Assembly (NCBI GenBank): GCA_013202335.1
Contig: JABMQR010000078.1
Span: forward strand, 1-32,522
Length of the DNA stretch: 32,522 nt
Direction of reading: 5' to 3'
Source of the DNA: Bacteroidota bacterium
GTDB lineage: Bacteria; Spirochaetota; Spirochaetia; JABMQR01
The notes under the pieces were generated by a model. That model saw nothing but the letters and a program-made list of their open reading frames with translations. It was not told where the DNA came from and did not search any database. Positions 3,168 to 28,444 of the stretch are shown one piece after another (the first letter of the stretch is position 1; every line of letters starts with the position of its first letter). The translations under genes and the position numbers were made by a program.

Positions 3168-3851
3168 TCATGCATTATCTTTATTATGAGAAAATTCCTG
3201 GATTATCGATTCAAGATTTCGCAAAATATGACTTTTCAGGAATTTACAGGCCTGATCCACATCCCCATCCTTCATCATCTTTGTCAGCATCCGGTGGTTT
3301 TTTGTCGAGTACCCATGATTTTTAGACTTAAGCTCAACTGCCTGAAACAGAACCATCATCTGGCTTGCCAGTACTTTCCACATCTGTATAAGCCGGGAAT
3401 TACCTGACATTTCCACAAGAAAAGAGTGAATCCGCTCAATATCAATACGGCGAACATCGAAAAAATCCTTCTGATCCTCACGTTGGTGCAGCTCCTCAAT
3501 CCTCTCTTCAAGTTCCAGATAATCTTTAGGGGTAAACCTGGGGATGGAGAGGCTAATCGCAATAGATTCCAGTTCTGCCCTGAGGGTAAGAATTTCCCTG
3601 ATATCTTTCTCGGTAAAATCGACTACCGTCAGTTTCCTTCTGCTTTCGTGTACAACAAGACCCTCTTTTGAGAGTTCCCGTATTGCTTCCCGGATAGGAG
3701 TTTTGCTGATATTCAGGTTTTTCGCTATTTCGTACTCCATCAGCCGCTCACCCGGTTTCAGCTTTCCTGATATTATCAACTCTTTTAATTGATTATAGAC
3801 GAGAATATGCAGTGATGTTTTATCGTCCATTGGTTCAAAAATATTTTCCAT
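3168..3851 (-). CDS. GntR family regulator, FCD subfamily (last gene of the 12-gene operon)
   Basis: DNA-binding transcription factor of 227 residues. The N-terminal winged helix-turn-helix is typical of GntR proteins (LKPGERLMEYEIAKNLNISK, then TPIREAIRELSKEGLV, residues about 35-70). The C-terminal all-helical FCD domain carries the usual metal or ligand Asp/His set (DIERIHSFL, KNHRML, KSHILRN). Such regulators usually respond to a sugar acid or other small carboxylate. It is translated 21 bases after the epimerase gene, from an AGGAG site. It is closely similar to the regulator at 15304-15990, and the recognition segment ISKTPIREAIR is identical, so both probably read the AGTCGACT box. As the operon carries its own regulator, feedback control is likely. 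Confidence 0.92.
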   Translation of the reverse strand: MENIFEPMDDKTSLHILVYNQLKELIISGKLKPGERLMEYEIAKNLNISKTPIREAIRELSKEGLVVHESRRKLTVVDFTEKDIREILTLRAELESIAISLSIPRFTPKDYLELEERIEELHQREDQKDFFDVRRIDIERIHSFLVEMSGNSRLIQMWKVLASQMMVLFQAVELKSKNHGYSTKNHRMLTKMMKDGDVDQACKFLKSHILRNLESIIQEFSHNKDNA

Positions 3852-3872: not shown

Positions 3873-4703
3873 TTAAATAATCGCTCTCAACATAGTTAAA
3901 GATTCTTTTAGGTCGTTCTCCGGATCCTTCTCAATAGGCCGCCAGATGCACACATCGCTTCCGGTTGGAAACTCCGGATACACATAGCTCTCAATTACCC
4001 ATGGACCTTTGTAGCCGGCATCCTTTGCCGCTTGTATAATCATCTTCCAATCCAGAAGTCCGCTTCCGGGAAAACCACGCTGATTCTCACTGAGGTGAAG
4101 ATGAAATAATTTACTACCTGCAGCAGCAAAGGCTTCCTGAAAAGAGTTCTCCTCAATGTTCATATGATAAGTATCAAGGTGCAGACCGGCATTCTCTTCA
4201 CCAATCATCTCAAGTATATGTATACCCTGTTTAGCGGTATTTAGAAAAGAGCTCTCATATCGATTTATACATTCCAGGGCAATGGACATATCCAAATCAG
4301 CCGCTCTCCTGGCAACCTCTTTCAGACCGGCAGCACTTGCTTTACGGTTATCTTCCCCTACTCGTTTTCTCAAACCCCAGGCAGAGTGGATTACACCCTG
4401 AAGAGAAGGACTTCCCAACTCTGAAGCGATGTCGATACAGCGAAAAAGATGATCCCGTCCTGCTGAAGAGATTTTTGAATCAGTACTGGATATGTCGGTA
4501 TCAGCCCCCAGACCTGTACCGCAGCAAACCTTTAGTCCTGTTTTTGTCAGAACCTGCTTCACTTCATTAAGCGGGAAGGTTGATGGATCCATAATCGGAA
4601 TCTCCACCAGGGAGAAACCCATTGCAGCTGCCTTTTCCATACATCCCAGAAATGGTGAGGTCCATTCCGGTGTCCAAAGCGATACATGAATACCTATATC
4701 CAT
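3873..4703 (-). CDS. Ketose 3-epimerase (D-tagatose/D-psicose/L-ribulose 3-epimerase family)
   Basis: Cytoplasmic TIM-barrel enzyme (276 residues), predicted to invert C3 of a free ketose. All residues known from D-tagatose 3-epimerase are present at a constant offset of minus 8: metal ligands E144, D177, H203 and E238 (E144 and E238 also being the catalytic pair), plus E150, H180 and R209. The family signatures LECINRYE, LDTYHMNIEE and HLHLSENQRGFPGSG are plain. The alternative family labels (hydroxypyruvate isomerase, sugar phosphate isomerase) fit less well because the substrate-contact residues match the 3-epimerases. The start codon overlaps the end of the oxidoreductase gene by 10 bases, so translation is coupled. 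The substrate could be a pentulose, hexulose or modified ketose; the split transketolase encoded just upstream is the likely consumer. Confidence 0.88.
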   Translation of the reverse strand: MDIGIHVSLWTPEWTSPFLGCMEKAAAMGFSLVEIPIMDPSTFPLNEVKQVLTKTGLKVCCGTGLGADTDISSTDSKISSAGRDHLFRCIDIASELGSPSLQGVIHSAWGLRKRVGEDNRKASAAGLKEVARRAADLDMSIALECINRYESSFLNTAKQGIHILEMIGEENAGLHLDTYHMNIEENSFQEAFAAAGSKLFHLHLSENQRGFPGSGLLDWKMIIQAAKDAGYKGPWVIESYVYPEFPTGSDVCIWRPIEKDPENDLKESLTMLRAII

Positions 4704-6532
4704 TCATCTATTCCTAATGCTTCAATCTTTGCTCTCCCTGGAAAACCGCTCGCTTCCCAGCCGCGTTCTTCGTAGAGCTTCTTCAGTTCCTGCTTAAAAT
4801 CAGCCGGGTATTTTCCTGCCCGTCCACCAGTTTCTGAAGGAATAAAAAAACGTTTTGGGAGCGTATCATCGGCCGCTGAGGCCCCCCAGGAGTTGTTCAG
4901 CACTCGTTGTGTTGTGAAAATTCTGTCACCGGCAGTGATAACGTCATCAACTGACATATCCCATCCGGTAATAACATTGAGGGTTTTCACCATATCTCCA
5001 AGCCCGTATCCGCCCCAAATCATGAACTGACACAGCACGCAGGAGTTATAGAAAGAGGTGAAATCCTGATACACTTTAACCACATGTGCCGCACCTTCTA
5101 ATGTATCCGGAGCCGGTGCTTTATCGATACCAGCCTCGGGAAGCAATGCACCCATAGTTGATATTTGTGAGTAAGCCCGCATATGGCAGGCTCCACGATT
5201 ACCAGTGGCATAGGAGAGAGAGAGATTGTAGTAAACTCTTGGGTCATGCGCCGGAATATCCATTCCTTTTACATGATGTGCATATTCAGCAGCCTCCGGC
5301 GAGAACGCTGCAGCACCTTTACGAATTCCATGGGAGAAAATTCCACCGAATCCTTTTCCTTCAGCCATTTCACTGAGAAATGCCAGAAGTCCCCCGCCAT
5401 CTCCCCATCCAAATGGGTAGTCAGGGGTCTGTCCCTTTGTATGAACCCGTTCAAGGGCTTCCATAGCAAATGCCGCACAGTTTCCCGCACTCATCGTATC
5501 CATTCCAGCCTGATTGCAGAACTGGTTGGCTTTCACCAGAATTTCCAGATCATCGATCATACAGCTTGCACCAAGAAGGGCAAGACTTTCATATTCAGGA
5601 CCTGATCCTTTGTATGTGTAACCATCAGCAAACTCTTTCTCAACAGTTCGGTGACAGGCAACGGTACAGTACATGCAGGCATGTGGTTTTGGGTTCAGAT
5701 CGTTGTACCCGGGATATCCGATTTTCGCCGCTCCCTCTTTCCATTCAGATTCTCCCCAGTTTTTCACCGGAAGATTTCCCGATTCTTCACCGGGAGCCAG
5801 TCCGCCGATAGTTCCTCCTGCACGAAACCCCGCTGAATTTTCAAGAATACTTTTTCGGTATTTTTTTTCCAGCTCCTTCAATGCTTCAGGATTTGCTACT
5901 GGTGGAGTTTGTGTACCCTTTACTACAATTGCTTTGAGATTCTTAGATCCTGCAACTGCTCCGGTTCCACCCCGGCCTACTGCTGAAAATCCATCAACTA
6001 TCATACAGGAGAGTGCAACCTGATTTTCCCCGGCCTGCCCGATTGCCGTAACTGAGGCACCCGGATGCAGTTCCTTCAGCTTATCTGTTGCTGATAGAGC
6101 ATCAACTCCCCATAGATCATCTGCAGGGAGTATTTCAGCACTGTTATCGGTAATATTCAGATAGACGGGAGTGCTGCTTTTCCCGCTTATGGTGAGAAAG
6201 TCAAATCCGGTTCGTTTAAAAAGGATGCCCCAGTTTGCTCCTGCAGCTGAATCCACAAACAGCCCGGTTAACGGGCTCCGGGTAACTACGGTAAATTTTG
6301 CGCTGCCGGATATTTTACTTGACTGAAAGGGACCTGTTGCAAAAATCAGCAGGTTCCCCGGGTCCAGTGCCCCGCACTCAGAAGGTACTTCACGTTTAAG
6401 GTATACCGCTGCTGCACCTGCCCCGCCGATGAATTTCTTAAGAAATTCCTCTTTAATTTCTTCCACAGAAACCGTTCGGTCTGTGAGATTTATTCGGAGA
6501 TTTTTCAACCAGAAACCACAACCACCAGCCAT
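4694..6532 (-). CDS. Tungsten-type aldehyde ferredoxin oxidoreductase
   Basis: Oxidises an aldehyde to a carboxylate and reduces ferredoxin, using a tungsten bis-pterin and a 4Fe-4S cluster. Length is 612 residues from the chosen start, near the family's usual ~605. The cluster ligands are visible: CMYCTVAC gives C286-x2-C289-x3-C293, and the distant fourth Cys lies in NSCVLCQF. Pterin-domain motifs such as GRGGTGAVAGSKNLKAI are typical. A longer frame is open to 6601, but the ATG at 6532 has the ribosome binding site (AAGAGGTG, spacing 6), gives the family's usual N-terminus (GFWLKNLRINLTD) and removes an overlap with the transketolase gene. Clustering suggests that the aldehyde arises from transketolase or lyase chemistry in the same pathway, possibly glycolaldehyde or sulfoacetaldehyde; that is inference. 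Confidence 0.93.
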   Translation of the reverse strand: MAGGCGFWLKNLRINLTDRTVSVEEIKEEFLKKFIGGAGAAAVYLKREVPSECGALDPGNLLIFATGPFQSSKISGSAKFTVVTRSPLTGLFVDSAAGANWGILFKRTGFDFLTISGKSSTPVYLNITDNSAEILPADDLWGVDALSATDKLKELHPGASVTAIGQAGENQVALSCMIVDGFSAVGRGGTGAVAGSKNLKAIVVKGTQTPPVANPEALKELEKKYRKSILENSAGFRAGGTIGGLAPGEESGNLPVKNWGESEWKEGAAKIGYPGYNDLNPKPHACMYCTVACHRTVEKEFADGYTYKGSGPEYESLALLGASCMIDDLEILVKANQFCNQAGMDTMSAGNCAAFAMEALERVHTKGQTPDYPFGWGDGGGLLAFLSEMAEGKGFGGIFSHGIRKGAAAFSPEAAEYAHHVKGMDIPAHDPRVYYNLSLSYATGNRGACHMRAYSQISTMGALLPEAGIDKAPAPDTLEGAAHVVKVYQDFTSFYNSCVLCQFMIWGGYGLGDMVKTLNVITGWDMSVDDVITAGDRIFTTQRVLNNSWGASAADDTLPKRFFIPSETGGRAGKYPADFKQELKKLYEERGWEASGFPGRAKIEALGIDEWI

Positions 6533-6557
6533 ATTATGCACCTCTTTTATCAAATTA

Positions 6558-7523
6558 CTAGTAATGTTTGAGAGAAATTGCCCTGTCCACAGCCTTTTCA
6601 ATAGCCTCAGCAGTCAATCCCAGTTTCTTCCGTAATCCATCTTCCGGACCTATACCGCAGAAGATATCCTGAATACCAACCCTGACAACAGGACTCGGTC
6701 TGTTTTCAGACAAGTATCCGGCAACTGCCTCGCCCAGACCGCCAAGGACATTATGCTCCTCCGCTGTTACAATACAGCCGGTTTCCATAGCCGCTTTGAG
6801 CACCGCCTCTTTATCCATCGGTTTGATGGTATGCATGTTTATCACCCTTGCTGATATTCCGCGTTCGGCAAGCACATCTGCAGCACGCAGCGATTCGGCA
6901 ACCATAATACCAAAACTAATAATTGTGACATCGGTTCCTTCCCGCAGCTGTACTGATTTTCCTACCGTAAATTCATAGTCCTCTGTATAGACAGATTCAA
7001 GTGATCCTCTTCCCATTCTCAGATAGACGGGACCAGGATAGTCGATTACGGCCTGCACGGCTTTGACCGTTTCCATTGCATCACTGGGAGCAACGATGGT
7101 CATATTTGCGAAGCTTCGCATAACGGCAATATCTTCGGTGGAATGGTGCGAAGTTCCGGCTGCAGCCATTGAGAGCCCTGTATGGGTACTCATCAGCTTT
7201 ACATTCATATTCTGGTAGCAGAGGTCATCTCTAACCTGTTCACATGCACGGAATGCCAGCAGAAAGCCATAAGCAGTAGCGATCGGGATTTTTCCGCATG
7301 AGGCAAATCCTGCTGCTGCAGATACCATCTCCATCTCCGCTATACCAAAGTTAAAGGTTCTTTCAGGGAATCTTTTTGCGAATGCAGCGGCCCGGGTGGA
7401 ACCAATTGCATCAGCTCCGAGAAGAACGATATCCTTATTCTTTTCACCTGCCATAACCAGAGCATTACCAAATGCATCACGGGCAGACATTTTTTCAACA
7501 TCAGCTAAACTAAATCCAGCCAT
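6558..7523 (-). CDS. Transketolase, C-terminal subunit (split enzyme)
   Basis: Carries the pyrimidine-binding and C-terminal domains of a transketolase (321 residues). The segment FNFGIAEMEMVSAAAG contains the Glu that activates the thiamine diphosphate aminopyrimidine ring. THTGLSMAAAGTSHHSTEDI and TIVAPSDAMETVKAV follow as in family members. It starts 2 bases after the stop of the N-terminal subunit gene, with GGGGAGGG as ribosome binding site, so the two halves are made together and should form a heterotetramer. Split transketolases occur in archaea and many anaerobes. They are also used in the described sulfo-transketolase pathway for sulfoquinovose, where they release sulfoacetaldehyde. 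Which ketose is cleaved here cannot be read from the sequence. Confidence 0.93.
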   Translation of the reverse strand: MAGFSLADVEKMSARDAFGNALVMAGEKNKDIVLLGADAIGSTRAAAFAKRFPERTFNFGIAEMEMVSAAAGFASCGKIPIATAYGFLLAFRACEQVRDDLCYQNMNVKLMSTHTGLSMAAAGTSHHSTEDIAVMRSFANMTIVAPSDAMETVKAVQAVIDYPGPVYLRMGRGSLESVYTEDYEFTVGKSVQLREGTDVTIISFGIMVAESLRAADVLAERGISARVINMHTIKPMDKEAVLKAAMETGCIVTAEEHNVLGGLGEAVAGYLSENRPSPVVRVGIQDIFCGIGPEDGLRKKLGLTAEAIEKAVDRAISLKHY

Positions 7524-8347: not shown

Positions 8348-9166
8348 CTACTTGCCCTCCTGTTCCTGGTGATATGCATTAATCAACGGCATCAGCATAA
8401 GCCCGTTTCGCATTAATTCCAGCGGGTATACTTCCTGTGGGAAGATGTTTCCCAGGTTTACGTTCGGGCCGAATCTCAGAATAAGTGCCTGTTCCTGCAT
8501 CCTCAGGGGAGCTTCCCAGATTACTTTATCCATATCGTCAATACCGGCTGTGATCTCTGAGAGTTCTTCCTCGTTGATATTGCCTTTTTCATCAAAAATA
8601 CCAACATCCATGCCGCTCGCTTTTCCCTCGATAATGATATAGTCACTTCCTGCATCAACATTCTCAACGAACTGCTGAAGAATTGTCGGTGCCTTAATAT
8701 TTTCCCGGGGATCTTTCTTGCCTACTTCTGTAGCAACGCGTAATCCCATATCTTTTGCTTCTTTGATGGAATCAAGTCTGTCACTGTCGCTCAGCGGAAG
8801 GTGACCGTCTGCTACCTCTACTACGTTGATTCCTAATTCGATAAGTTTCCGAAAATACTCAGTTCTTGTTCCCTTCCAGTTTGCAATTTCATAATGTGAT
8901 CCGCCGGCTTCAACTTCGATTCCGTATGATCGAATAAGCTCCACTTTTCTCCGCAGAATTGCTTCACTGTAGAGTGCGGCAGTTCCGGATGATATTTTCA
9001 ATATATCTATGTAGCGTCCTGCATAATCAAGGAGATCCCTGGTTTCAACAATTCCGCTTCCCATATCAATAACCATGGTCAAACCACTGGTTCTCGGTGG
9101 TTCTGTTCTTCCCGGTACCGGAAATTCATAGACTCCGTCCATTCCACGTTTCTGTATCAAATTCAT
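8348..9166 (-). CDS. ComA/phosphosulfolactate synthase family protein
   Basis: TIM-barrel protein of the family that joins phosphoenolpyruvate and sulfite to make (R)-2-phospho-3-sulfolactate, the first step of coenzyme M synthesis in methanogens and of sulfolactate synthesis in Bacillus spores. The 272 residues show family features: KRGMDGVYEFPVPGRTEPPR, LTMVIDMGSGIVETRDLLDY, IDILKISSGTAALY, GIEVEAGGSHYEIANWKGT, VVEVADGHLPLS, and a C-terminal GPNVNLGNIFPQEVYPLELM. No comBC or comDE homologue is nearby and the operon is catabolic in style, so the enzyme may run backwards, releasing phosphoenolpyruvate and sulfite, or may act on another substrate; the related plant Hsa32 has no settled reaction. 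It is preceded by a 63-base gap with a small hairpin, and TGGAGG serves as ribosome binding site. Confidence 0.85.
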   Translation of the reverse strand: MNLIQKRGMDGVYEFPVPGRTEPPRTSGLTMVIDMGSGIVETRDLLDYAGRYIDILKISSGTAALYSEAILRRKVELIRSYGIEVEAGGSHYEIANWKGTRTEYFRKLIELGINVVEVADGHLPLSDSDRLDSIKEAKDMGLRVATEVGKKDPRENIKAPTILQQFVENVDAGSDYIIIEGKASGMDVGIFDEKGNINEEELSEITAGIDDMDKVIWEAPLRMQEQALILRFGPNVNLGNIFPQEVYPLELMRNGLMLMPLINAYHQEQEGK

Positions 9167-9188
9167 AATTAGTCCTCCATATAGACTC

Positions 9189-9203
9189 TCAGCTCGTAGC
9201 TGA
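9189..9203 (-). other. Intercistronic hairpin between kinase and ComA-like genes
   Basis: TCAGCT-CGT-AGCTGA is a perfect 6-bp stem with a 3-base loop, in the only sizeable untranslated gap in the lower half of the operon. It has no T run, so it is probably not a terminator; it may protect or mark a processing site in the mRNA. Confidence 0.4.
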
Positions 9204-9229
9204 TTTTGGTTGCAATGTATTCTCGTCGT

Positions 9230-10231
9230 TTATACTAAAACGACATCCAGACACTCTTCCGGGCAGGTAAGAAATTTCCAGCAAGCCTGGATATCCGCAT
9301 ATTTCAAAAATTCCTCTGCGGCTTCCATTCGTTTTATTTGATCACTCCCGGTATCTACTGACGGAATAAATACTTTTTTATAGACATAGCTCGGGGGTGA
9401 TACTTTATCAGAGAGATTCTCATAGGCTGAATAGATAATCCCTGCTTTTTCCAGCGGATACCGCTCTGCCTCCAGCCTGTCGGATTCAATTCTCGGAAAA
9501 AGTATAACGACTTCAGGATGTTCCATTACATCCTCAGGATATTGCCAGGGTTTCAGGTCTACAGAGAGATACTGCTTCCATGGATTTCCATTAGGGGTGT
9601 AATCTATTGAAAAGGTCTCAAGAAGTGAAGGAAAATCCTCAACGAGATTCCCCATTCGGCAGTTCTGCCAGAGAGATCCTTTGTAAAACATCACTTTATC
9701 ATCTTTAATGCTGAAATGGGTAAGTTCCGTACCGAATATCTGCATCCCCTCTTTTACCGCTTTTAGAAGAACTGTACTTTTCCCTGCCCCTGAACCTCCC
9801 AGTATAAGGTAGAGTCTGTTTGTTCCGGGTTGTACAAAACTTGTTGAGTGAAAGGAGTGTATCCCTCTTTTTTCCAGTTCCAGAACAAGAATCTTAGAAA
9901 AAATACCCATATTCCCAAAAATTGAGGCTCTTTTATCACCAGAACCTTCCTCAAGGGCTTTTACCGGACCGCTAAAAACATAGGTCCCGTTCTGCTTTGA
10001 AATAGTCAGGGTTTCCTGCTGGTTATCTTCAATCTTAATCCTGACATCAATCCGTTTTCCGGTATCTGCAGTTAGCTGCACCAGTTCATAAAAATTTGAG
10101 AGCAGTGAGTGCAGTTTACCGTTTTTACCCAAAAAGTACTCATCATCTTCAAGTATCTCCGGGTAATTTGAGGTGAGCTCAATATTCATCCCCAGTAATG
10201 AAAATAGTCTGGGGTATTCTTGTTTCATCAT
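9230..10231 (-). CDS. HprK-like P-loop kinase of unknown substrate
   Basis: Cytoplasmic 333-residue protein with one clear nucleotide-binding motif, GGSGAGKST (residues 145-153), in the context YLILGGSGAGKSTVLLKAV. It is preceded by a beta-strand region containing HSFHSTSFV. This layout resembles the C-terminal kinase domain of HPr kinase/phosphorylase and the related PEP-carboxykinase-like fold. The N-terminal ~110 residues and C-terminal ~100 residues are not recognisable, and no HPr-kinase signature beyond the P-loop region is plain. It overlaps the LarA-like gene by ATGA. The operon has no other kinase, so phosphorylation of a pathway intermediate (a sugar or hydroxyacid) is a reasonable guess. 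A regulatory protein kinase role is the alternative. Confidence 0.7.
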   Translation of the reverse strand: MMKQEYPRLFSLLGMNIELTSNYPEILEDDEYFLGKNGKLHSLLSNFYELVQLTADTGKRIDVRIKIEDNQQETLTISKQNGTYVFSGPVKALEEGSGDKRASIFGNMGIFSKILVLELEKRGIHSFHSTSFVQPGTNRLYLILGGSGAGKSTVLLKAVKEGMQIFGTELTHFSIKDDKVMFYKGSLWQNCRMGNLVEDFPSLLETFSIDYTPNGNPWKQYLSVDLKPWQYPEDVMEHPEVVILFPRIESDRLEAERYPLEKAGIIYSAYENLSDKVSPPSYVYKKVFIPSVDTGSDQIKRMEAAEEFLKYADIQACWKFLTCPEECLDVVLV

Positions 10232-11481
10232 AGAAGCTCCCTTAGGCTCTCGGTGTTTATCGGCAGTACAGATGAACCATTCTGCATCACAGCAGTACGG
10301 ATCGATAAAAGATTGCCGTGTCTTTCTGCAACAGCAAAGATATCCCCAATATTTTTAAGACACCGCATACCTGCTGCTTCGACTTCACTTTCAGGCAAAT
10401 CGGAGTAGAACCAGACGGTATATGAACGTATTATGGAGAGCGCCATGTAGAGGGCCAGCCCATCCATAGTGAATGAACGCTGAAGGTTTTGGGAAATCTC
10501 CTCCAGAGTCATCGTAAAATAAGAAAACAGCTCATCCCGTATTTCCCATCCATGTGAGCACTGGGAGATAATAATCAGTGTGCCTCCGGGTTTACATGCC
10601 CGACTGGAATTAGTCAGGACTTTCATGCTCTGATAAAAAGAGCAGTCTGATGGATAGCCTCCGGCAGATGAAATCACTACATCATACTTTTCCACGATCT
10701 CGACAGAGTGATGCACAGAGACATACTTTCGGCAATCGTCCCATACCGAATCCACCTTGCCGCAGGAAGCGAACTCTATCCTGTTTTGCTCATTCAGCAC
10801 CACATTCAGAGCCCATAAATGTGCAAAACCTTTCGTTCTCTCTCTGATATCATTTAATACCGGATTATTATCAATTTTAGCGGGACCAGTTCCTGTATGC
10901 ACACTGTTTCCGTTAAAATAGAGCCGGTGATTTTGATAAATATCTTTAGATGAAGCTATACCGGGCAGAAGGCTTTTCCGTCCTCCCGAGAACCCTGCCA
11001 TTGGGTGAAAAGTAACCGCACCGGTAACGATAACCCGGTCTGCATTTACTGCATCCTGGTTGAATTCGGCTGTCCCTGAACCTGCAAGAAACTTTTCTGC
11101 ATCATGATTAACCACTCGTACATCAGTGGGAAGTTCACCGCCGCAAATTGTCTGAATTTCTGCAGAGTTTGCAGGTCTGTGAAGTCCCAGCGCAATAATC
11201 AGAGTAATGGATCCGGCTTTAAGTCTCTGCAGCTCTTTCAGCAGCATGGGTACATATATGTCACTTCCGGTAGGTCGGGTATGGTCAGAGACAACAATTG
11301 CCACTGAGCATCCCGGTTCAATAAAGGCTGAAAGGGGGACGGAGGCGTGCAGCAGCGCTGCCTGCACAATCAAATCCGGGGCATCTGCTGATGGGTTTGT
11401 GTAACTGAGATAATCAACATGTGTAACCTTACCGAGATCCAAAGGAACCCGGGTCCAACCGTAGTTGAGTTTGTCCGTCAC
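10228..11481 (-). CDS. LarA-family nickel-pincer-dependent racemase/epimerase
   Basis: Predicted to invert a 2-hydroxyacid stereocentre by hydride abstraction with the nickel-pincer nucleotide cofactor. Length is 417 residues, as in the family (DUF2088 plus C-terminal domain). The residues that hold the cofactor and act as bases in lactate racemase are all present: H101 in GLHRP, H159 in TFHPMAGFSGG, K169 in GGRKSLLPGI (the covalent lysine) and H185 in QNHRLYF. The gene starts with GTG, and GTGA overlaps the preceding stop. The cofactor-making genes larB, larC and larE are not in the window, so they must lie elsewhere if the enzyme is active. Characterised homologues act on lactate, malate, gluconate and other hydroxyacids; sulfolactate would fit the ComA-like neighbour but is unproven. 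Confidence 0.9.
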   Translation of the reverse strand: MTDKLNYGWTRVPLDLGKVTHVDYLSYTNPSADAPDLIVQAALLHASVPLSAFIEPGCSVAIVVSDHTRPTGSDIYVPMLLKELQRLKAGSITLIIALGLHRPANSAEIQTICGGELPTDVRVVNHDAEKFLAGSGTAEFNQDAVNADRVIVTGAVTFHPMAGFSGGRKSLLPGIASSKDIYQNHRLYFNGNSVHTGTGPAKIDNNPVLNDIRERTKGFAHLWALNVVLNEQNRIEFASCGKVDSVWDDCRKYVSVHHSVEIVEKYDVVISSAGGYPSDCSFYQSMKVLTNSSRACKPGGTLIIISQCSHGWEIRDELFSYFTMTLEEISQNLQRSFTMDGLALYMALSIIRSYTVWFYSDLPESEVEAAGMRCLKNIGDIFAVAERHGNLLSIRTAVMQNGSSVLPINTESLRELL

Positions 11482-12398
11482 TTCCCCGCTTCTCCTTCAC
11501 TGTTATTAAAATCCGGCCAATTCTGAAAAGGGCTCATTTTCCACCCTTCATGCATTCTTTTGAAAAATTCATCAACATTGGTTATATAGTCCGGCATGGT
11601 CACCTGATTCCCACCATTTGAGAGGTTGATCATGCCTTTTTCAAGACTTCCCGCTTCAGCTTCAATGGTACATTTCTTATCGTGAAACAGTTCTCTTTCT
11701 CCAAGGTAAAGAGCAGGCAGCATTGCCCAGAGAAAAGCTGCTGCTTTTCCATGCAGCTCTCTGCATCTGCCGGAAAGCAGATACTCTTTTACGAGATAGT
11801 AGAGTCGAATATTATATTCCCTGATTGTAAAGAGATCATCGATTGAAAGTGATGCCAGGGCTCCAATATGCATATTCATAAGAACCAGGTTTTGCGCCTC
11901 ATTCAGTACATGTTCAGAAGCAAGCGGGTCTTGAGAAAGGGTTGTATCCCCCTCAAGGTCCCAACCGGGAATCTGAAGCGGATAGAGCAGTCCGCCACAG
12001 CAGATAATCTGCCTGCAGTGTGCATAAAAATCTTTATCCAATAGTGAGGCGCCGTAGATATTTCCGAGCGGCCCGGTAGAGAGAATTATCAATCCGCTCC
12101 CCCCGCCATCAGCTGATTCAGCTGCACTTTTTGCCAGAAATTCTGCTGCCGCAGTTTGATATTCACCAGATTTATTATGCCCCTTAATAATTGGGATATC
12201 TGATCGGTTATTTATTCTGAGGAGCCAGGAAACGGCGTCCAGTGTTTTGTCAATTGATTCATTTCCCCTGGTTACAGTAACTGCTTTGACATCAACATCT
12301 TTCCGTCCAAGGAGATACAGAAGCGCAAGCCCGCTATCCACTGGTGCACCGGGAAGGCCGAATGTCATGTCAGTATCAAAAATTACAGATTGACTCAT
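11478..12398 (-). CDS. Nucleoside-hydrolase-like protein C, calcium site lost (probable pseudoenzyme)
   Basis: Third of three nucleoside-hydrolase-fold paralogues in the operon (306 residues). The N-terminal signature is altered. Where Crithidia IUNH has D8, D10, D14 and D15, this protein has D8 and D10, a six-residue insertion, then D21-S22, so the calcium ligand D15 is Ser. The position of IUNH N168, Asn in A and B, is Thr here (DTTLSQDPLA, about T153). The position of calcium ligand D242, in YLWDLLPA of A and B, is Ala (FLWAMLPA, A225). Three active-site changes in an otherwise intact, full-length protein argue for a retained non-catalytic partner or sensor rather than decay. It is coupled by ATGA to B and by GTGA to the LarA-like gene. 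No signal peptide. Confidence 0.8.
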   Translation of the reverse strand: MSQSVIFDTDMTFGLPGAPVDSGLALLYLLGRKDVDVKAVTVTRGNESIDKTLDAVSWLLRINNRSDIPIIKGHNKSGEYQTAAAEFLAKSAAESADGGGSGLIILSTGPLGNIYGASLLDKDFYAHCRQIICCGGLLYPLQIPGWDLEGDTTLSQDPLASEHVLNEAQNLVLMNMHIGALASLSIDDLFTIREYNIRLYYLVKEYLLSGRCRELHGKAAAFLWAMLPALYLGERELFHDKKCTIEAEAGSLEKGMINLSNGGNQVTMPDYITNVDEFFKRMHEGWKMSPFQNWPDFNNSEGEAGK

Positions 12399-13312
12399 TT
12401 ACTGCCCTCCCCGCTCTTTTCTTTTATCCATTCATCGTACCAGGGCCCATCCTGATTCATGGTTACCTTTCCCCATGCCTCATACATAATCCGGTAGCAT
12501 CTATCTATATCAACAATATAATCAGGCATGATTACTTCAGCTCCGCTGCTCCCTTCTCTCAGGTATCCCTGTTCAATCTCTTCCGGGCTGGAATCAATTT
12601 GAACCGTTTTTGCATGAAAAAGATCGGGATAGGAGATATATACTGCCGGCAGGAGATCCCAAAGATAATCCTGAGCATCCTCCAGGTGTTCTGCACTTGC
12701 CAGAAGCAGCTCTTTCATGATGAAAAACTGTCTGCGGTCATGCAGAGCTATGGGATCAAGTTCTTTCTGTCCAAAAGGGACAGCAAAACAGATATGTGCA
12801 TTCATAATTACTACCGGGCAGTCAGCTCTGAATACCTGCCAGGAGGCCTCTCCGTCTCCGGAAAAATTCACTTCACCTACATGCGCCCAGCCCTTATAGG
12901 GAAGCCGGTGCAGATAACCGCCCATCGTTAGTATCTGTTTCAGGTTTCCGAAAAATCCCGCATCCTCAGCATTCGCCGCCTTAAGGTTTGCCAGCGTTCC
13001 AATAGCAACAAGGTTAATTTCTCCCGGATGCTCTGCAGCTTTTTCTGCAAGAAACCGGGAGGCCTCGGTTGCTCCGCCGGCATAGTCAGAAGCCCCTCTC
13101 AAAACAGGGATATCAGTTCTTCCCAACTGTTCCATCAGCCAGAGTGTTGCCGGATAGACATCATCAATGGTGCTGTTGCCGAACGTTGCGGTAATTCCGA
13201 GAATCTCGATATCATCTCTGCCGAGCAGATAGATTATCGTCTGTCCATCATCAATAGGTTTGCCGGAGACTCCGAATGTATTGTCACAGTCGATAATAAC
13301 TTTGTGTCTCAA
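12395..13312 (-). CDS. Nucleoside-hydrolase-like protein B
   Basis: Nucleoside hydrolase fold (IUNH family), which classically cleaves the N-glycosidic bond of ribonucleosides to ribose and base with a calcium-activated water. At 305 residues it keeps all the expected acidic ligands: D8 and D10 in IIDCDNTFG, D21-D22 in PIDDGQT, N149 in GEVNFSGD and D219 in YLWDLLPAVYISYP. The usual compact DxDPGxDD is stretched by six residues in all three paralogues of this operon, so the substrate is probably not an ordinary nucleoside. It begins with TTG; TTGA overlaps the ankyrin stop codon, which ties its translation to that gene. An active glycosidase is likely. Confidence 0.83.
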   Translation of the reverse strand: MRHKVIIDCDNTFGVSGKPIDDGQTIIYLLGRDDIEILGITATFGNSTIDDVYPATLWLMEQLGRTDIPVLRGASDYAGGATEASRFLAEKAAEHPGEINLVAIGTLANLKAANAEDAGFFGNLKQILTMGGYLHRLPYKGWAHVGEVNFSGDGEASWQVFRADCPVVIMNAHICFAVPFGQKELDPIALHDRRQFFIMKELLLASAEHLEDAQDYLWDLLPAVYISYPDLFHAKTVQIDSSPEEIEQGYLREGSSGAEVIMPDYIVDIDRCYRIMYEAWGKVTMNQDGPWYDEWIKEKSGEGSK

Positions 13313-14067
13313 CTTTGCAGCTCTTCCTTTGTTCCCCAGATTTCCTGAGGAGTTTTCCCATCAATATTCAGTATTGAATCATCCGCGCCAGCAGAAATAA
13401 GCAGGTCATATATTTCTTTGTTTGCGTACGCTGCAGCTTTATGGAGGGGTGTGCCTTCAAATCTGGTCGTACTAAATGAAAAAGCAAGCTGATTTACATC
13501 GGCCCCATGTTCCAGAAATATCTTTACGGATTTTACATATCCTCTTTCAACTGCATCATGAAGCAGACTCTGTCCACAGATTCCTACGGAATTCAGCGCT
13601 ACCTGATTTACCTCAAGAAGTTCCAGAACAGCAGCAAATCGCTCATCTCCGGTCAACTTTTCAATCCCTTCCCCGGCAGAATCAATAGTGCGCACATTTC
13701 TTGAACCTTTTAAGATTTCAAGAATGATATCAACATACTCTCTTCGCACAGCATCATGCAGCGCAGTCCAGCCTTTACCTTCAGCCAGATCCAGATCTAC
13801 GCCGTAATTAAACAGCAGCTGGATACAATCAAGATGGTTTAACCATGCTGCGAAATGCAGCGGCGTTGTAGCATTATTATCGCGTGCATTTGGGTCAGCC
13901 CCGGACATAAGCAGCAGAGAAACCGCCTCGGTCCAGCCTGATGCACAGGCCAGATGTAAGGCTGTTTTTCCTGACTCATCTTTCTGATCAGGATCCATTC
14001 CTTCAGCAAGAGCCGCGAATAATTCACTGTTTTGGGCAGCAGCCAGTTCAGGCAGGGTGAAATCCAA
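13309..14067 (-). CDS. Ankyrin repeat protein
   Basis: The 252-residue protein consists almost wholly of ankyrin repeats, about six, with typical TALHLA / TPLHFA / TALHDA / SLLHDA / TPLHKA cores and GAD-x-N turns. There is no signal peptide or membrane helix, so it is cytoplasmic. Ankyrin repeats bind other proteins; its place between nucleoside-hydrolase-like genes A and B suggests that it binds or organises one of the operon's enzymes, but there is no direct evidence. The start is TTG at 14067, four bases after GGAGGGG; an ATG just upstream is in another frame. Structural genes for sugar pathways seldom carry such a protein. Confidence 0.88.
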   Translation of the reverse strand: MDFTLPELAAAQNSELFAALAEGMDPDQKDESGKTALHLACASGWTEAVSLLLMSGADPNARDNNATTPLHFAAWLNHLDCIQLLFNYGVDLDLAEGKGWTALHDAVRREYVDIILEILKGSRNVRTIDSAGEGIEKLTGDERFAAVLELLEVNQVALNSVGICGQSLLHDAVERGYVKSVKIFLEHGADVNQLAFSFSTTRFEGTPLHKAAAYANKEIYDLLISAGADDSILNIDGKTPQEIWGTKEELQS

Positions 14068-14129: not shown

Positions 14130-15104
14130 CTATTCCCAACCATGAGATTCTCGCTCCCACTCTTTACGCCATCCACTTTCCATGATGTCCATAAAACGTT
14201 TCTGATCCAGAATATTATCTGGCATTATTATGGTCACTACCCCATCTAAATTACCTAATTTCTCTTCCTCGGCGGAAACAGGCTGCAGCATTCCACATTG
14301 AAGGCTTTTAACTGTTGGGCAAATAAGTATTTGCTTCAAGTCAAACAGTTCAGGATAGGAGATATAGACAGCAGGCAGCAGATCCCAGAGATAGAATGCA
14401 TCTCCGGAAAAGTGATTAGAGAACTTAGTGTGCCAGTCCCGAACAATCTTTTGACGTTCTTCCGGCCAGTAAGCTATTCGGTTCATATCCTGAATTTTGA
14501 ATGGTGCCTGAAGGCAAATATGTCCATTAAAAACAACAACTGGACACTCAGCTTTCAGCATACTGTATGCGGCTTCCGGGTTGCAGGAAAGGTTCAATTC
14601 CCGACAGTTTATCTCTCCAATATAGAGATCCTCAGTATATCCGCCCATTAACACTATCTCTTTTGTTTTCTGATAAAAATCATTGTCTAGTTTCCATGCA
14701 TCGTAAAGATTCCCGGCAGGTCCCAAAGCTAATATTGAAATCTCACCAGGATATTTATTTACCTGCTCAACTAAAAATCGTGCAGCATCCGAAGGAAATT
14801 CCTGCGTATCAAGTTCATTCTCATATCTATTCCCGGCGCGGATTTCCAGAATCAGCTGAGGGTTCTGTCCGGCAAAGGATTCACCACTAAATCTGGGGAT
14901 ATCTGTTCGCCCTATATCTTTGAGTACCTGCTCTGTATAGTGCACAACATCTCGAAGTGATCCGTTTCCGAAAGTATTTGTTATTCCAAGAATATCAATA
15001 TCATCCCTGCCAAGAAGGTAGAGGAGAACCAGTCCGTCATCAACTTCCCAGTCTGGAAGCCCCATTGTATTATCACAGTCTATTATCACTCTCTTTTTAT
15101 TCAT
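14130..15104 (-). CDS. Nucleoside-hydrolase-like protein A (first gene of the operon)
   Basis: IUNH-fold N-glycosidase homologue with the catalytic calcium site intact: IIDCDNTMG supplies the first two Asp, EVDDGLV the second pair, ELNLSCNPEAA the conserved Asn, and YLWDLLPAVYISYP the C-terminal Asp. Compared with IUNH there is a six-residue insertion within the N-terminal motif, shared with B and C. The frame also has a TTG at 15110, but that abuts the ribosome binding site; the ATG at 15104 sits 6 bases after AGAAGGG and is preferred (324 residues). The transcript leader is very short because the promoter -10 box is at 15129-15134. The gene opens the 12-gene operon. Substrate unknown. Confidence 0.86.
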   Translation of the reverse strand: MNKKRVIIDCDNTMGLPDWEVDDGLVLLYLLGRDDIDILGITNTFGNGSLRDVVHYTEQVLKDIGRTDIPRFSGESFAGQNPQLILEIRAGNRYENELDTQEFPSDAARFLVEQVNKYPGEISILALGPAGNLYDAWKLDNDFYQKTKEIVLMGGYTEDLYIGEINCRELNLSCNPEAAYSMLKAECPVVVFNGHICLQAPFKIQDMNRIAYWPEERQKIVRDWHTKFSNHFSGDAFYLWDLLPAVYISYPELFDLKQILICPTVKSLQCGMLQPVSAEEEKLGNLDGVVTIIMPDNILDQKRFMDIMESGWRKEWERESHGWE

Positions 15105-15128
15105 TTCCAACCCTTCTTTTTGTCATAT

Positions 15129-15157
15129 ATTATATAGTCGACTTTATACTATGTCAA
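15129..15157 (-). promoter_or_regulatory. Sigma70-type promoter with AGTCGACT operator, ahead of the 12-gene operon
   Basis: On the minus strand TTGACA (15152-15157), a 17-base spacer and TATAAT (15129-15134) form a consensus promoter. The spacer contains the palindrome AGTCGACT (15136-15143), where a bound repressor would block RNA polymerase. Nearly the same arrangement recurs at 25029-25058 and, in variant form, at 23415-23453. Binding by one or both GntR regulators of this window is inferred. Confidence 0.85.
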
Positions 15158-15269
15158 ACTTTTTTCACTGAATCACAGCGGAATCACAGCTTTTCGTTAA
15201 GCCGATACCTATTCAAATTACCCGTAATAATCAAATATAGACACTCCTTATCATTTATATGTATAATTC

Positions 15270-15284
15270 AGTCAACTATATAAT
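15270..15284 (+). promoter_or_regulatory. Operator variant and -10 box ahead of the second GntR gene
   Basis: AGTCAACT (15270-15277), one base different from the operator of the other promoters, runs straight into TATAAT (15279-15284), 20 bases before the GntR start codon. There is no convincing -35 box. The position suggests that the regulator represses its own weak promoter. Confidence 0.6.
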
Positions 15285-15303
15285 AAGAAATAGGAAATAA
15301 TGC

Positions 15304-15990
15304 ATGGATCACCTCGTACTAAGTGAATTCGAAAGCCTACCTCTACATAAAATCGTATATATAAAACTCAGAGAATCTATTCTATCCGGAGCATTGAAAC
15401 CTGGTGAAAAACTTATAGAAAACGATCTCTCCAAACAGCTGAAAATTAGCAAAACCCCCATTCGCGAAGCCATCCGCGTGCTCTCTCAGGAGGGGTTAAT
15501 TGTCCACAATACCCGTAGGGGAATAACCGTTATCGATTTCACAGCAAAGGATGTTTGGGAAATTATAACATTGCGGACCGAAATCGAAGCAATGGGAATC
15601 CGTCTTACCATTGATAATATTGATAAAAATGATTACAAAATACTCGACAAAATCATCAATCAATTAGTAGCTTCTGCTAAACAAAAAAAGTTTACCGCAA
15701 TGGCTAAAGCTGATATGAAATTTCATCACTTTCTTATGGAAAAATCAGGAAACTCACGACTGGTTACGGCCTGGAATACTATAGCCTCACAGATGCAGGT
15801 ATTACTGCAAATGATAGATTTCTACTCTTTCACCCCGAATTATTCGGAACAAAACCACCGGAAATTAATTCAGGCGATTCAATCCGGTGATCAGGAACGT
15901 ACTGCAGCATTAATAAAAGAACATGTAGCTACCAGTATGGACCTAATCCTAAAGCAGTTTCATAACGTAAAAAATGGGAATCAGAAATAG
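15304..15990 (+). CDS. GntR family regulator, FCD subfamily
   Basis: Transcription factor of 228 residues. It has a GntR winged helix-turn-helix (LKPGEKLIENDLSKQLKISK, TPIREAIRVLSQEGLI) and a C-terminal FCD domain with metal or ligand residues in ADMKFHHFL, QNHRKL and KEHVATS. It is strongly similar along its length to the regulator at 3168-3851, so the two are paralogues. It stands between the two halves of the catabolic region and is divergent from the 12-gene operon, whose promoter lies in the shared 199-base intergenic region. This is the classic position of a local repressor. Its own promoter carries a variant of the operator. Effector unknown. Confidence 0.93.
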   Translation: MDHLVLSEFESLPLHKIVYIKLRESILSGALKPGEKLIENDLSKQLKISKTPIREAIRVLSQEGLIVHNTRRGITVIDFTAKDVWEIITLRTEIEAMGIRLTIDNIDKNDYKILDKIINQLVASAKQKKFTAMAKADMKFHHFLMEKSGNSRLVTAWNTIASQMQVLLQMIDFYSFTPNYSEQNHRKLIQAIQSGDQERTAALIKEHVATSMDLILKQFHNVKNGNQK

Positions 15991-18146: not shown

Positions 18147-18156
18147 AAAAGTACCC

Positions 18157-19023
18157 TTATTTACCGTATGAATTTACAGAACCAGCTGCATTCTGTGAAA
18201 GATATTTTGCAGAGAAAATTAGCAATATGATTGTTGGCAGCAAAAAGATAATTCCTAACGTTGAAGTCATGCCATTATCTCCGGAACCCACAAATGAGAA
18301 GAGAAGAAGCGGCATGGTTATAACTCTTCCACCACCGATAAGTACTGTCATTATGTACTCACCCCACGATATGATAAAAGCAAACAATCCCCCTGTAATG
18401 ATACCGGGAGCAATCGCGGGAATTGTTATAAGAAAAAATGTTTTTGTCTTATTTGCACCAAGAATTCTCGCCTGTTCCTCAAATTCAGGATTGTAGTTTG
18501 CAAATACTCCAGTCAGGGCTATGGTCATATAGGGAATAGTCTTGAGTAGATGGACAAGCATTACCCCTACTACTGAATCAGATAATCCGATTTTAATAAA
18601 TACAATATGCATACCCATTGTTACCGCAAGACCTGGAATAATACTTGGCGCAAGAATAAAAAACTGTGCCAGGGTTTTAAACCTGAAAGTATGCATTCCC
18701 AATGCCCTGCCGGCAGGTATACCAATACAGGTTGAAACAAATGTGACTACCGCAGCTATAAGCAGACTGTTTCTAAATGCTGAAAATACATTTGAGCCAG
18801 CCCTGAAAGCACTTCGCCATGGACGTAAACTTAAATTCTCCGGCAGCAAGGTTGGATAGAGCCACCGTTCGCTGAAAGCCCACATAATCATAGGAATCAG
18901 CGGTAGAATAACCAGAACCACAACCCCCAGCATAATTATAGAGAGCATTGTTTTTTTTGTAGAATCGACTTTATTAGGGATCTGTGGTATTGGTGTTTCA
19001 ATCTTACTGATAGTCTTACTCAT
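18157..19023 (-). CDS. ABC transporter permease (second)
   Basis: Inner-membrane permease of the spermidine/putrescine-thiamine-Fe type (288 residues), with about six membrane helices and a charged N-terminal tail before the first. The loop that couples to the ATPase is visible as EEQARILGANKTKTFFLITI. It starts 3 bases downstream of the partner permease's stop, with AAGGAG as ribosome binding site. Together with the gene at 19026-19895 it makes the membrane channel of the importer. Confidence 0.93.
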   Translation of the reverse strand: MSKTISKIETPIPQIPNKVDSTKKTMLSIIMLGVVVLVILPLIPMIMWAFSERWLYPTLLPENLSLRPWRSAFRAGSNVFSAFRNSLLIAAVVTFVSTCIGIPAGRALGMHTFRFKTLAQFFILAPSIIPGLAVTMGMHIVFIKIGLSDSVVGVMLVHLLKTIPYMTIALTGVFANYNPEFEEQARILGANKTKTFFLITIPAIAPGIITGGLFAFIISWGEYIMTVLIGGGRVITMPLLLFSFVGSGDNGMTSTLGIIFLLPTIILLIFSAKYLSQNAAGSVNSYGK

Positions 19024-19025
19024 CC

Positions 19026-19895: not shown

Positions 19896-19899
19896 CGAA

Positions 19900-20952: not shown

Positions 20953-20973
20953 ATCGTGTTCCTCTGAAATTTT

Positions 20974-21011
20974 AAAAACTGCAGCAGCCCCAGCTTTTTG
21001 AGGCTGCTGCA
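20974..21011 (-). terminator. Intrinsic terminator within the ABC operon, after the binding-protein gene
   Basis: On the minus strand TGCAGCAGCC and GGCTGCTGCA form a perfect 10-bp GC-rich stem (21011-21002 with 20989-20980), followed by G and five T. It stands between the binding-protein gene and the URO-D-type gene. Partial termination here would make more binding protein than membrane components. Confidence 0.82.
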
Positions 21012-21030
21012 TTTAATTCAAATAATTTGT

Positions 21031-22278: not shown

Positions 22279-22298
22279 AGTAAACCTCCAATTTTTCT

Positions 22299-22314
22299 AA
22301 TCCTTATAAAAGGA
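22299..22314 (-). other. Small hairpin between ATPase and binding-protein genes
   Basis: ATCCTT and AAGGAT form a 6-bp stem with a 4-base loop, just upstream of the binding-protein ribosome binding site. The T run after it is poor, so it may stabilise the downstream message rather than terminate. Confidence 0.35.
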
Positions 22315-22335
22315 TATAATGACATTTCTATAATA

Positions 22336-23376: not shown

Positions 23377-23414
23377 GCAAGTTTCTCCTTCTAGCTGGCC
23401 TCAATACTTTATTA

Positions 23415-23453: not shown

Positions 23454-23462
23454 ATTATTTTA

Positions 23463-27751: not shown

Positions 27752-27766
27752 TTCTATATCCTTGTT

Positions 27767-28435: not shown

Positions 28436-28444
28436 GATAGCCTC

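What the first reader, a model, noticed from the sequence alone, without database searches (positions are those of the whole stretch)
8348..11481. LarA-like racemase + HprK-like kinase + ComA-like lyase: possible new route for breaking a C-S bond
Three adjacent coupled genes form a chemically sensible chain. A nickel-pincer racemase would set the configuration of a 2-hydroxyacid, a kinase would phosphorylate its hydroxyl, and a phosphosulfolactate synthase homologue working in reverse would release phosphoenolpyruvate and sulfite. The family reaction of ComA (PEP + sulfite giving phosphosulfolactate) is established; the reverse catabolic use and the kinase substrate are my inference. I know of no described sulfolactate pathway built this way. 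No sulfite exporter or reductase, and no comB-E, is in the window. A weaker alternative is that the ComA-like protein eliminates a different group.
Basis: partly seen in the sequence, partly recalled or inferred. Interest (0 to 1): 0.85.

Follow-up and report, generated by a model that had tools for sequence, protein, structure and literature searches.

The report
Possible anaerobic methylthio-riboside breakdown gene cluster
A large, rare gene cluster in uncultured anaerobic bacteria looks like a new assembly line that takes up modified ribose compounds, trims the sugar and uses a repurposed coenzyme M enzyme to expel the group at its end, probably methanethiol rather than sulfite.

Summary
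The three genes are real, adjacent and on one strand, but they are the middle of a larger conserved cluster: ABC importer, two nucleoside-hydrolase-like enzymes with intact metal sites, L-fucose-isomerase-like isomerase, ketose-3-epimerase-like protein, split transketolase, aldehyde:ferredoxin oxidoreductase, LarA, kinase, ComA-like protein. The same set recurs in three other long spirochaete loci, in one with the order reshuffled (in one the isomerase is truncated). The 'HprK-like' protein has a PEP-carboxykinase fold. The ComA-like clade (61 sequences) keeps the core residues, but against the 58 nearest ordinary ComA sequences it has Met for Lys35, KA for RE and ML(M)P for R(G/A)DT, and gains two His, with almost no overlap. 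The LarA specificity residues are non-polar in 6 of 6 loci. A sulfite-reductase domain was found in 0 of 5 cluster-bearing genomes. This argues against sulfolactate and for a neutral group. Best reading: 5-X-5-deoxyribosides are hydrolysed, isomerised, epimerised and cut by transketolase to 3-X-lactaldehyde; oxidation, inversion and phosphorylation follow, and the ComA-like enzyme releases X and PEP. X is most likely methylthio (from 5'-methylthioadenosine), giving methanethiol. Every enzymatic step is inferred; gene set, linkage and residue swaps are shown.

The parts
8348..9166 (-). ComA-like lyase candidate (clade-specific active-site pattern)
   Evidence: Pfam PF02679 253.6 bits; arch_ComA 271.5 bits, cut-off 280; MjComA 1qwg E 1.1e-46; fixed differences, 61 clade vs 58 ordinary sequences
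9230..10231 (-).
10228..11481 (-). LarA-like nickel-pincer 2-hydroxyacid racemase
   Evidence: Pfam Lar_N/LarA_C; best NCBIfam NPN_LarAH10 271.5 bits, below cut-off 540; catalytic residues kept, non-polar specificity residues
7525..8379 (-). Transketolase N-terminal half
   Evidence: PF00456; catalytic His kept against E. coli TktA
6558..7523 (-). Transketolase C-terminal half
   Evidence: PF02779/PF02780; R358, S385, H461, R520 kept, D469 to A
4694..6601 (-). Aldehyde:ferredoxin oxidoreductase (listed TTG start overlaps the previous gene; an in-frame ATG at about 6532 is likelier)
   Evidence: PF02730/PF01314; AOR structures E 1e-98 to 1e-95
3873..4703 (-). TIM-barrel epimerase, nearest D-psicose 3-epimerase (ketose C3 epimerase type)
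   Evidence: PF01261; NF051856 201.9 bits, below cut-off 300
3168..3851 (-). GntR/FCD regulator
11478..12398 (-). Degenerate nucleoside-hydrolase-like paralogue (IUNH1): first DxD kept here, second Asp pair and C-terminal Asp changed
   Evidence: PF01156; alignment
12395..13312 (-). Nucleoside-hydrolase-like enzyme (IUNH2), metal-binding pattern intact
   Evidence: PF01156; PDB nucleoside hydrolases; alignment
13309..14067 (-). Ankyrin-repeat protein; fused to an ADP-ribosylglycohydrolase domain in L003, L004 and (its end only) L001, domain absent here
14130..15110 (-). Nucleoside-hydrolase-like enzyme (IUNH3), metal-binding pattern intact
   Evidence: PF01156; alignment
15304..15990 (+). GntR/FCD regulator 2
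18157..19023 (-). ABC permease 1
   Evidence: PF00528; conserved in L003, L004, L005
19026..19895 (-). ABC permease 2
   Evidence: PF00528; conserved in L003, L004, L005
21031..22278 (-). Solute-binding protein of the importer
   Evidence: PF13416; conserved in L003, L004, L005
22336..23376 (-). ABC ATPase with TOBE domain
   Evidence: PF00005/PF08402; conserved in L003, L004, L005
23463..24872 (-). L-fucose-isomerase-like aldose-ketose isomerase candidate
   Evidence: homologues named L-fucose isomerase-like, some with PF02952; full-length in L004 and L005/L038, truncated in L003

Best explanation
The cluster encodes an anaerobic catabolic route for ribosides whose ribose carries a blocking group X at C5 (5-X-5-deoxyribosides). 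Steps, all inferred from family membership: (1) ABC import; (2) nucleoside-hydrolase-like enzymes free 5-X-ribose; (3) the fucose-isomerase-like enzyme makes 5-X-ribulose; (4) the 3-epimerase makes 5-X-xylulose; (5) the split transketolase passes C1-C2 to a sugar phosphate and leaves 3-X-lactaldehyde of D configuration; (6) the aldehyde:ferredoxin oxidoreductase makes 3-X-D-lactate and reduced ferredoxin; (7) LarA inverts it to the L form, which is the configuration of the ComA product; (8) the PEPCK-fold kinase phosphorylates the 2-hydroxyl; (9) the ComA-like enzyme removes the 2-proton and expels X, giving phosphoenolpyruvate. No classic sugar kinase was found in the cluster, which fits a C5 that cannot be phosphorylated. 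X is most likely methylthio (substrate 5'-methylthioadenosine or a related methylthio-riboside; products PEP and methanethiol), because the changed LarA and ComA-like positions are non-polar and Met-rich. The general scheme is likelier (about 0.5) than the methylthio identity (about 0.35).
For: Gene set kept in 4 of 4 long loci (window, L003, L004, L005; the isomerase truncated in L003) although the order is reshuffled in L005. ComA clade: core kept (E147, K150, K151, E180, E218, N237, N240), but K35M (61/61 vs K in 58/58), F60S, F91H, T122H, R182K, E183A (61/61 vs E in 56/58) and R257M with ML(M)P for R(G/A)DT (60/60 non-gapped vs 58/58). Kinase fold = PEP carboxykinase, with H128 and the P-loop aligned to E. 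coli Pck. LarA: catalytic and NPN residues kept, specificity positions P, M, M, L, A/G in 6 of 6 loci; the nearest NCBIfam family, LarAH10, belongs to a group found to act mainly on 2-hydroxyacids with hydrophobic side chains, 2-hydroxyvalerate among them (PMC11770544), which is isosteric with 3-methylthiolactate (own reasoning). Two hydrolases keep the metal site. Transketolase keeps catalytic and phosphate-binding residues. NIR_SIR in 0 of 5 genomes. Precedents: E. coli grows on 5'-methylthioadenosine by another shunt (PMC10986504); transketolase accepts 5-deoxyribose in vitro (PMC8102628); methylthiolactate arises from methylthioadenosine in anaerobic Rhodospirillum rubrum (PMC4958253).
Against: No step is tested. 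LarA and epimerase score well below the curated cut-offs of their nearest families. LarAH10 itself had its best efficiency on D-mannonate/D-gluconate, which its authors think is its native substrate, and very low efficiency on the hydrophobic acids (PMC11770544); the group rule of F/Y at the W358 position is not met here, where Leu stands. Which residues of ComA contact sulfite and which PEP could not be read (paper not held), so the loss of cationic residues could concern another part of the substrate; the 58 ordinary sequences are the nearest listed ones, out of 2008 hits of which 120 were shown. The transketolase D469-to-A/G change is unexplained. NPN maturation gene larC was found in only 1 of 5 genomes, probably incompleteness. 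The 2-3 hydrolases, plus an ADP-ribosylglycohydrolase domain in L003, L004, L005 and (its end) L001, suggest several aglycones or anomers, more than methylthioadenosine alone needs. G003 also has an ordinary MTA/SAH nucleosidase above its cut-off.
Confidence: 0.4

Rival explanations
1. Sulfonate route (first reader, extended): X is sulfonate. A 5-sulfo-riboside or sulfolactate is processed to phosphosulfolactate and split into PEP and sulfite.
For: ComA's known chemistry run backwards; the transketolase logic parallels the sulfo-TK pathway, where transketolase SqwGH cuts sulfofructose (PMC12890257); core ComA residues kept; sulfite could be exported (TauE family in 5 of 5 genomes).
Against: Loss of two cationic residues that are invariant in the 58 ordinary ComA sequences compared; no cationic residue in the LarA specificity positions in 6 of 6 loci; NIR_SIR in 0 of 5 genomes; TauE is in 14 of 14 controls, so it says nothing; 'sulforibose', 'sulfopentose' and '5-deoxy-5-sulfo' occur in no held paper.
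Confidence: 0.15
2. Arsenosugar route: X is dimethylarsinoyl; 5-deoxy-5-dimethylarsinoyl ribofuranosides with several aglycones are hydrolysed and the C-As bond is broken by beta-elimination.
For: These are beta-ribofuranosides with a 5-deoxy-5-substituted ribose (PMC6656958, passages); several hydrolase types would suit several aglycones; the group is uncharged (recalled).
Against: No arsenic gene was named among the Pfam-scanned neighbours; carbon yield from trace compounds would be low. Not tested directly.
Confidence: 0.08
3. Ordinary pentose route: X is OH. Free ribose is broken down without a sugar kinase through glyceraldehyde and glycerate; the kinase makes a 2-phosphoglycerate and the ComA-like enzyme dehydrates it.
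For: Nucleoside hydrolases, isomerase, epimerase and transketolase all have ordinary pentose substrates; LarA relatives can act on glycerate (PMC11770544).
Against: D-2-phosphoglycerate needs neither a racemase nor a second enolase; the LarA specificity residues differ from those of lactate/glycerate racemases (F, F, W, E/Q there).
Confidence: 0.12
4. Two joined modules: the isomerase, epimerase, transketolase and oxidoreductase process the sugar, while LarA, kinase and ComA-like act on the aglycone, an unrelated 2-hydroxyacid.
For: In L002 LarA sits beside the oxidoreductase and epimerase, which separate it from kinase-ComA; in L005/L038 LarA is at the far end of the cluster from the kinase.
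Against: Kinase and ComA adjoin the transketolase genes in the window, L003, L004 and L005; the single-chain scheme uses every enzyme once.
Confidence: 0.15

Closest known systems
ComA, (2R)-phospho-3-sulfolactate synthase (Methanocaldococcus jannaschii 1qwg; bacterial relatives)
   Same: Same family by sequence; the acidic, Lys and Asn residues conserved in both groups are kept.
   Different: Separate clade with swaps at K21, F/W46, L/F77, S/T108, R170-E171 (Mj numbers) and at the R(G/A)DT motif of the bacterial relatives (that end of the Mj chain was not in the alignment); in a sugar-degradation cluster without coenzyme M genes.
Sulfo-TK sulfoglycolysis (SqwGH), review PMC12890257
   Same: Transketolase cuts a ketose whose last carbon carries a hetero-group.
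   Different: C5 rather than C6 scheme, starts from a riboside; the product is oxidised and the hetero-group expelled instead of leaving the cell on a C2 unit.
DHAP shunt and MTA-isoprenoid shunt for 5'-deoxynucleosides (PMC10986504, PMC4958253)
   Same: Proposed substrate class (5'-methylthioadenosine and similar) and use as carbon or sulfur source.
   Different: Transketolase and a PEP-forming elimination instead of a sugar-1-phosphate, aldolase, RubisCO-like protein or cupin, none of which was named in the cluster.
PEP carboxykinase
   Same: Fold over nearly the whole protein, P-loop and the preceding His strand.
   Different: 333 residues instead of 540 (E. coli Pck); where Lys213 would fall, one residue before the aligned stretch, stands Met108, invariant in 33 of 33, so carboxykinase activity is not expected.
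LarA superfamily, hydrophobic 2-hydroxyacid racemases (LarAH10 group, PMC11770544)
   Same: Catalytic and NPN-binding residues; nearest NCBIfam family is LarAH10.
   Different: Scores 271.5 against a cut-off of 540; Leu instead of Phe/Tyr at the W358 position.

Membership tests
ComA / PF02679 family | Sequence match over the domain | tested here: met
   253.6 bits, cut-off 25.2
ComA equivalog (phosphosulfolactate synthase, TIGR03849) | Score above curated cut-off 280 | tested here: not met
   271.5 bits, only slightly below
ComA equivalog (phosphosulfolactate synthase, TIGR03849) | Residues conserved in the 58 nearest ordinary ComA sequences (DKG, GRE, R(G/A)DT) | tested here: not met
   Met at K35 and KA at RE in 61 of 61; R(G/A)DT in 0 of 61, ML.P in 60 of 61
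ComA equivalog (phosphosulfolactate synthase, TIGR03849) | PEP + sulfite activity | not testable with these tools
   needs assay
PEP carboxykinase superfamily | Fold | tested here: met
PEP carboxykinase (enzyme) | Catalytic Lys pair before GMFS (K212/K213 in E. coli; role recalled) | tested here: inconclusive
   N107-M108 stand there if the hhalign alignment, which starts at G109 = G214, is extended by two residues
HPr kinase (HprK) | HprK sequence family match | tested here: inconclusive
   no Pfam or NCBIfam match at E 0.001; HprK not among the 50 rows listed, which does not exclude it
LarA superfamily | Catalytic D72, H108, H174, K298 and NPN residues R75, K184, H200 | tested here: met
   conserved in 6 of 6 loci (H108 as the G[YL]HR motif, the position table being one residue off for it)
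Malate-type racemase (dianionic substrate) | Lys at the T359 position | tested here: not met
   Ala in 5, Gly in 1 of 6 loci
Hydrophobic 2-hydroxyacid racemases | F/Y at the W358 position, hydrophobic pocket | tested here: inconclusive
   Leu in 6 of 6; other specificity positions non-polar
Nucleoside hydrolases (PF01156) | DxD...DD metal site and C-terminal Asp (motif recalled) | tested here: met
   kept in 5 of 5 IUNH2 and 4 of 4 IUNH3; incomplete in 3 of 3 IUNH1
Transketolase | Catalytic His and phosphate-binding residues of E. coli TktA (roles recalled) | tested here: met
   H26, H66, H100, H261, H473, R358, S385, H461, R520 in 4 of 4; D469 changed in 4 of 4

The most novel reading that the evidence does not exclude
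An undescribed oxygen-independent pathway that breaks down 5'-methylthioadenosine (or other methylthio-ribosides) through transketolase, an aldehyde:ferredoxin oxidoreductase and a nickel racemase, and ends with a PEPCK-fold methylthiolactate kinase and a ComA-derived lyase that yields PEP and methanethiol: a new enzyme function in each of the last two families.
Probability: 0.33. Interest if true: 0.85.

Novelty: new variant of a known kind. Interest (0 to 1): 0.7.

Why it matters
If right, a coenzyme M biosynthesis fold has been turned into a degradative lyase, and the PEP carboxykinase fold into a small-acid kinase. It would also give anaerobes a way to gain PEP and low-potential electrons from sugars that cannot be phosphorylated at C5, and a biological source of methanethiol in anoxic habitats. 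The proposal names a substrate for every enzyme, so each step can be assayed singly, and it lets two automatic annotations ('phosphosulfolactate synthase' and 'hypothetical protein') be corrected in a whole clade.

Tried and rejected
The window's own genome is not held. HprK membership: no family match and no HprK in the 50 listed fold rows, so I moved to PEPCK; the absence is not proof. Viral contigs: 13 stretches matched a pattern, none encodes the kinase. Searches of solved structures with the solute-binding protein, the isomerase and the UROD-like protein gave nothing. TauE as a sign of sulfite export: rejected, 14 of 14 control genomes have it. LarC as a test of racemase function: 1 of 5 genomes, uninformative for incomplete genomes. 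Ordinary coenzyme M synthesis: no comB-E named in the window, and the ComA-clade profile matched 1 of 392 Spirochaetota genomes drawn, the cluster genome G003. Kinase family in the same draw: 5 of 392 at E 0.001, of which only G003 is full-length, the other four being 19-23 bit partial matches. In both draws only some first-look candidates per genome were scored, so misses are possible. Order of G005: 1 of 139, itself. Literature: no held paper holds three of 'phosphosulfolactate synthase', 'nucleoside hydrolase', 'lactate racemase', 'transketolase', 'fucose isomerase'; among the titles listed (19 of 19; 15 of 23) none describes a transketolase-based methylthioribose route. Tree: the 61 ComA-clade sequences are monophyletic, and with P0137 the node has support 0.997; the printed support of 0.0 for the 61-tip node follows re-rooting and is not used. 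The predicted ComA-like model (pLDDT 80.5) was not searched further. My first ORF picking missed permease 1 and the kinase in L004; both are there by tblastn.


Full report
What is in the window. They sit inside a run of close-set genes: ankyrin protein, two nucleoside-hydrolase-like proteins, LarA, kinase, ComA-like, transketolase N and C halves, aldehyde:ferredoxin oxidoreductase, a TIM-barrel epimerase, and a GntR/FCD regulator. A third nucleoside-hydrolase-like gene and a second GntR regulator follow at 14130-15990. A GH42 protein, an ABC importer, a UROD-like protein and a 469-residue protein without a Pfam match occupy 16014-24872.

Relatives. A pattern-plus-tblastn scan of the genome collection (one genome for each of 84,980 species) found 5 loci, all from spirochaete metagenome-assembled genomes by their titles. 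The kinase family has 75 listed members, all with E of 2e-42 or lower; of the five that carry an organism name four are spirochaetes and one Atribacteria. In an evenly drawn set of 392 genomes of the phylum the ComA-clade profile matched 1, and the kinase profile matched the same genome at full length. The system is therefore rare but recurrent.

Conserved set. L003 (with L040) has, in order: IUNH3, binding protein, two permeases, ATPase, isomerase (truncated), ADP-ribosylglycohydrolase-ankyrin fusion, IUNH2, IUNH1, LarA, kinase, ComA, transketolase halves, oxidoreductase, epimerase, GntR. L004 repeats this order without IUNH1. In L005 with its continuation L038 the order is: kinase, ComA, transketolase halves, IUNH3, binding protein, IUNH2, permeases, ATPase, isomerase, ADP-ribosylglycohydrolase, LarA, oxidoreductase, epimerase. 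L001 and L002 are short contigs that hold parts: ankyrin, IUNH2, IUNH1, LarA, kinase, start of ComA in L001; LarA, oxidoreductase, epimerase, kinase, ComA in L002. That the same enzymes stay together after reshuffling is the strongest evidence that they form one pathway. Across metagenome proteins, 22 of 33 ComA-clade clusters on contigs of at least 9 kb share an exact contig length with the kinase family (21 of 32 without the window) and 19 of 33 with the isomerase family; of 27 ordinary ComA clusters none do (80 of 100 listed isomerase homologues used).

Isomerase. The 469-residue protein has homologues named 'L-fucose isomerase-like protein', several with Pfam PF02952.

ComA-like protein. 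The comparison sets are the 61 clade members and the 58 nearest ordinary ComA sequences among the 120 hits shown of 2008. The clade keeps E147, K150, K151, E180, E218, N237 and N240 (K151 equals Lys137 of the M. jannaschii enzyme, which I recall as catalytic but could not check). It differs at K35M, F60S, P87A, T90S, F91H, S119A, T122H, R182K, E183A, K222R and R(G/A)DT257-260 to ML(M)P, nearly all without overlap; exceptions are 2 of 58 ordinary sequences with Ala at 183, 1 with Arg at 222, and variation at 87 and 259 inside the clade. P0137, at 50% identity, is intermediate: Leu at 35, Gln at 91, Thr at 122, KA, MLQP. One part of the conserved residues is kept and another exchanged; I infer that PEP is kept and the leaving group is new. 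Two gained His could protonate a poor leaving group such as a thiolate (speculation).

LarA. In 6 of 6 loci the catalytic and cofactor residues are kept, and the specificity positions F175, F176, V297, W358, T359 read P, M, M, L, A (G once). In malate racemases a Lys sits at the last position, and Mar2 has Tyr-Lys in the loop (PMC7583248, section 7 read; PMC11770544, sections 5 and 6 read). A sulfonate side chain would want such a charge. The nearest family, LarAH10, belongs to a group that acts mainly on 2-hydroxyacids with hydrophobic side chains; against my use of it, LarAH10 itself was most efficient on mannonate/gluconate and weak on the others.

Why a racemase at all. D-ribose-derived 3-X-lactate has D configuration at C2; (R)-sulfolactate, the ComA stereochemistry, is L by geometry (own reasoning). 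An inversion step is therefore needed, and LarA supplies it.

Sulfite. A NIR_SIR domain was found in 0 of 5 cluster-bearing genomes and in 11 of 14 control genomes. The five are metagenome-assembled and may be incomplete, so this is supporting evidence only. TauE tells nothing.

Hydrolases. IUNH2 (5 of 5) and IUNH3 (4 of 4) keep the metal-site pattern; in IUNH1 it is incomplete in 3 of 3. The ADP-ribosylglycohydrolase domain of L003, L004, L005 and (its end) L001 gave no significant match in the window, so it is not essential.

Literature. Growth on methylthioadenosine and 5-deoxyadenosine through the DHAP shunt of E. coli is in PMC10986504 (abstract read). Transketolase action on 5-deoxyribose in vitro is in PMC8102628 (passages). 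Sulfo-TK and sulfolactate lyase routes are in PMC12890257 (passages). Methylthiolactate as a product of anaerobic methylthioadenosine metabolism is in PMC4958253 (passages), where a RubisCO was required and its role was left open. None of the titles listed by the ten searches describes the present cluster; only looked for its gene combination.

Verdict. The sulfonate reading is possible but disfavoured. The best-supported proposal is a transketolase route for 5-substituted ribosides ending in PEP and a released neutral group, most likely methanethiol.

Noticed in passing
window 19900-21012 and 16014-18146: A UROD-family protein lies inside the importer genes and a GH42 beta-galactosidase-like gene at their end; neither had a match in L003-L005. 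UROD relatives include methyl-transfer enzymes (recalled), which could matter if methanethiol is made.
   Followed up: partly
window 11478-12398; L003:7873-8766: The third nucleoside-hydrolase-like paralogue (IUNH1) has an incomplete metal site (wholly lost in L003) yet is kept between IUNH2 and LarA in the window, L001 and L003: a possible regulatory or structural subunit.
   Followed up: partly
window 13309-14067; L003:5392-7014; L004:6026-7855; L001:1-1098: ADP-ribosylglycohydrolase domain fused to ankyrin repeats inside a catabolic operon; the hydrolase part is gone in the window while the ankyrin part stays.
   Followed up: partly
window 6558-7523 (transketolase C half): Asp469 of E. coli TktA is Ala or Gly in 4 of 4 cluster transketolases, a change near the acceptor hydroxyl site (role recalled).
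   Followed up: partly
G005 genome (loci L005, L019, L023): Ten LarA-family matches in one Sphaerochaeta genome, but no LarC match.
   Followed up: no
window 26207-29140: CotH kinase, DUF4956 and VTC-domain genes side by side, followed by a two-component system at 29281-31484.
   Followed up: no
L003:4830-5426: The isomerase ORF in L003 is only 198 residues and matches only parts of the second half: truncated gene or assembly error.
   Followed up: partly
L005:5103-6602: An oxidoreductase molybdopterin-binding domain (sulfite-oxidase-like family, recalled) protein in a second transporter cluster next to the locus.
   Followed up: no
L002:173-883; L038:10289-10984: A ThiF-family gene flanks the cluster in two loci.
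   Followed up: no
protein P0137: A 50%-identical relative on a 6.7 kb contig with an intermediate set of active-site residues, useful for tracing how the clade arose from ComA.
   Followed up: partly
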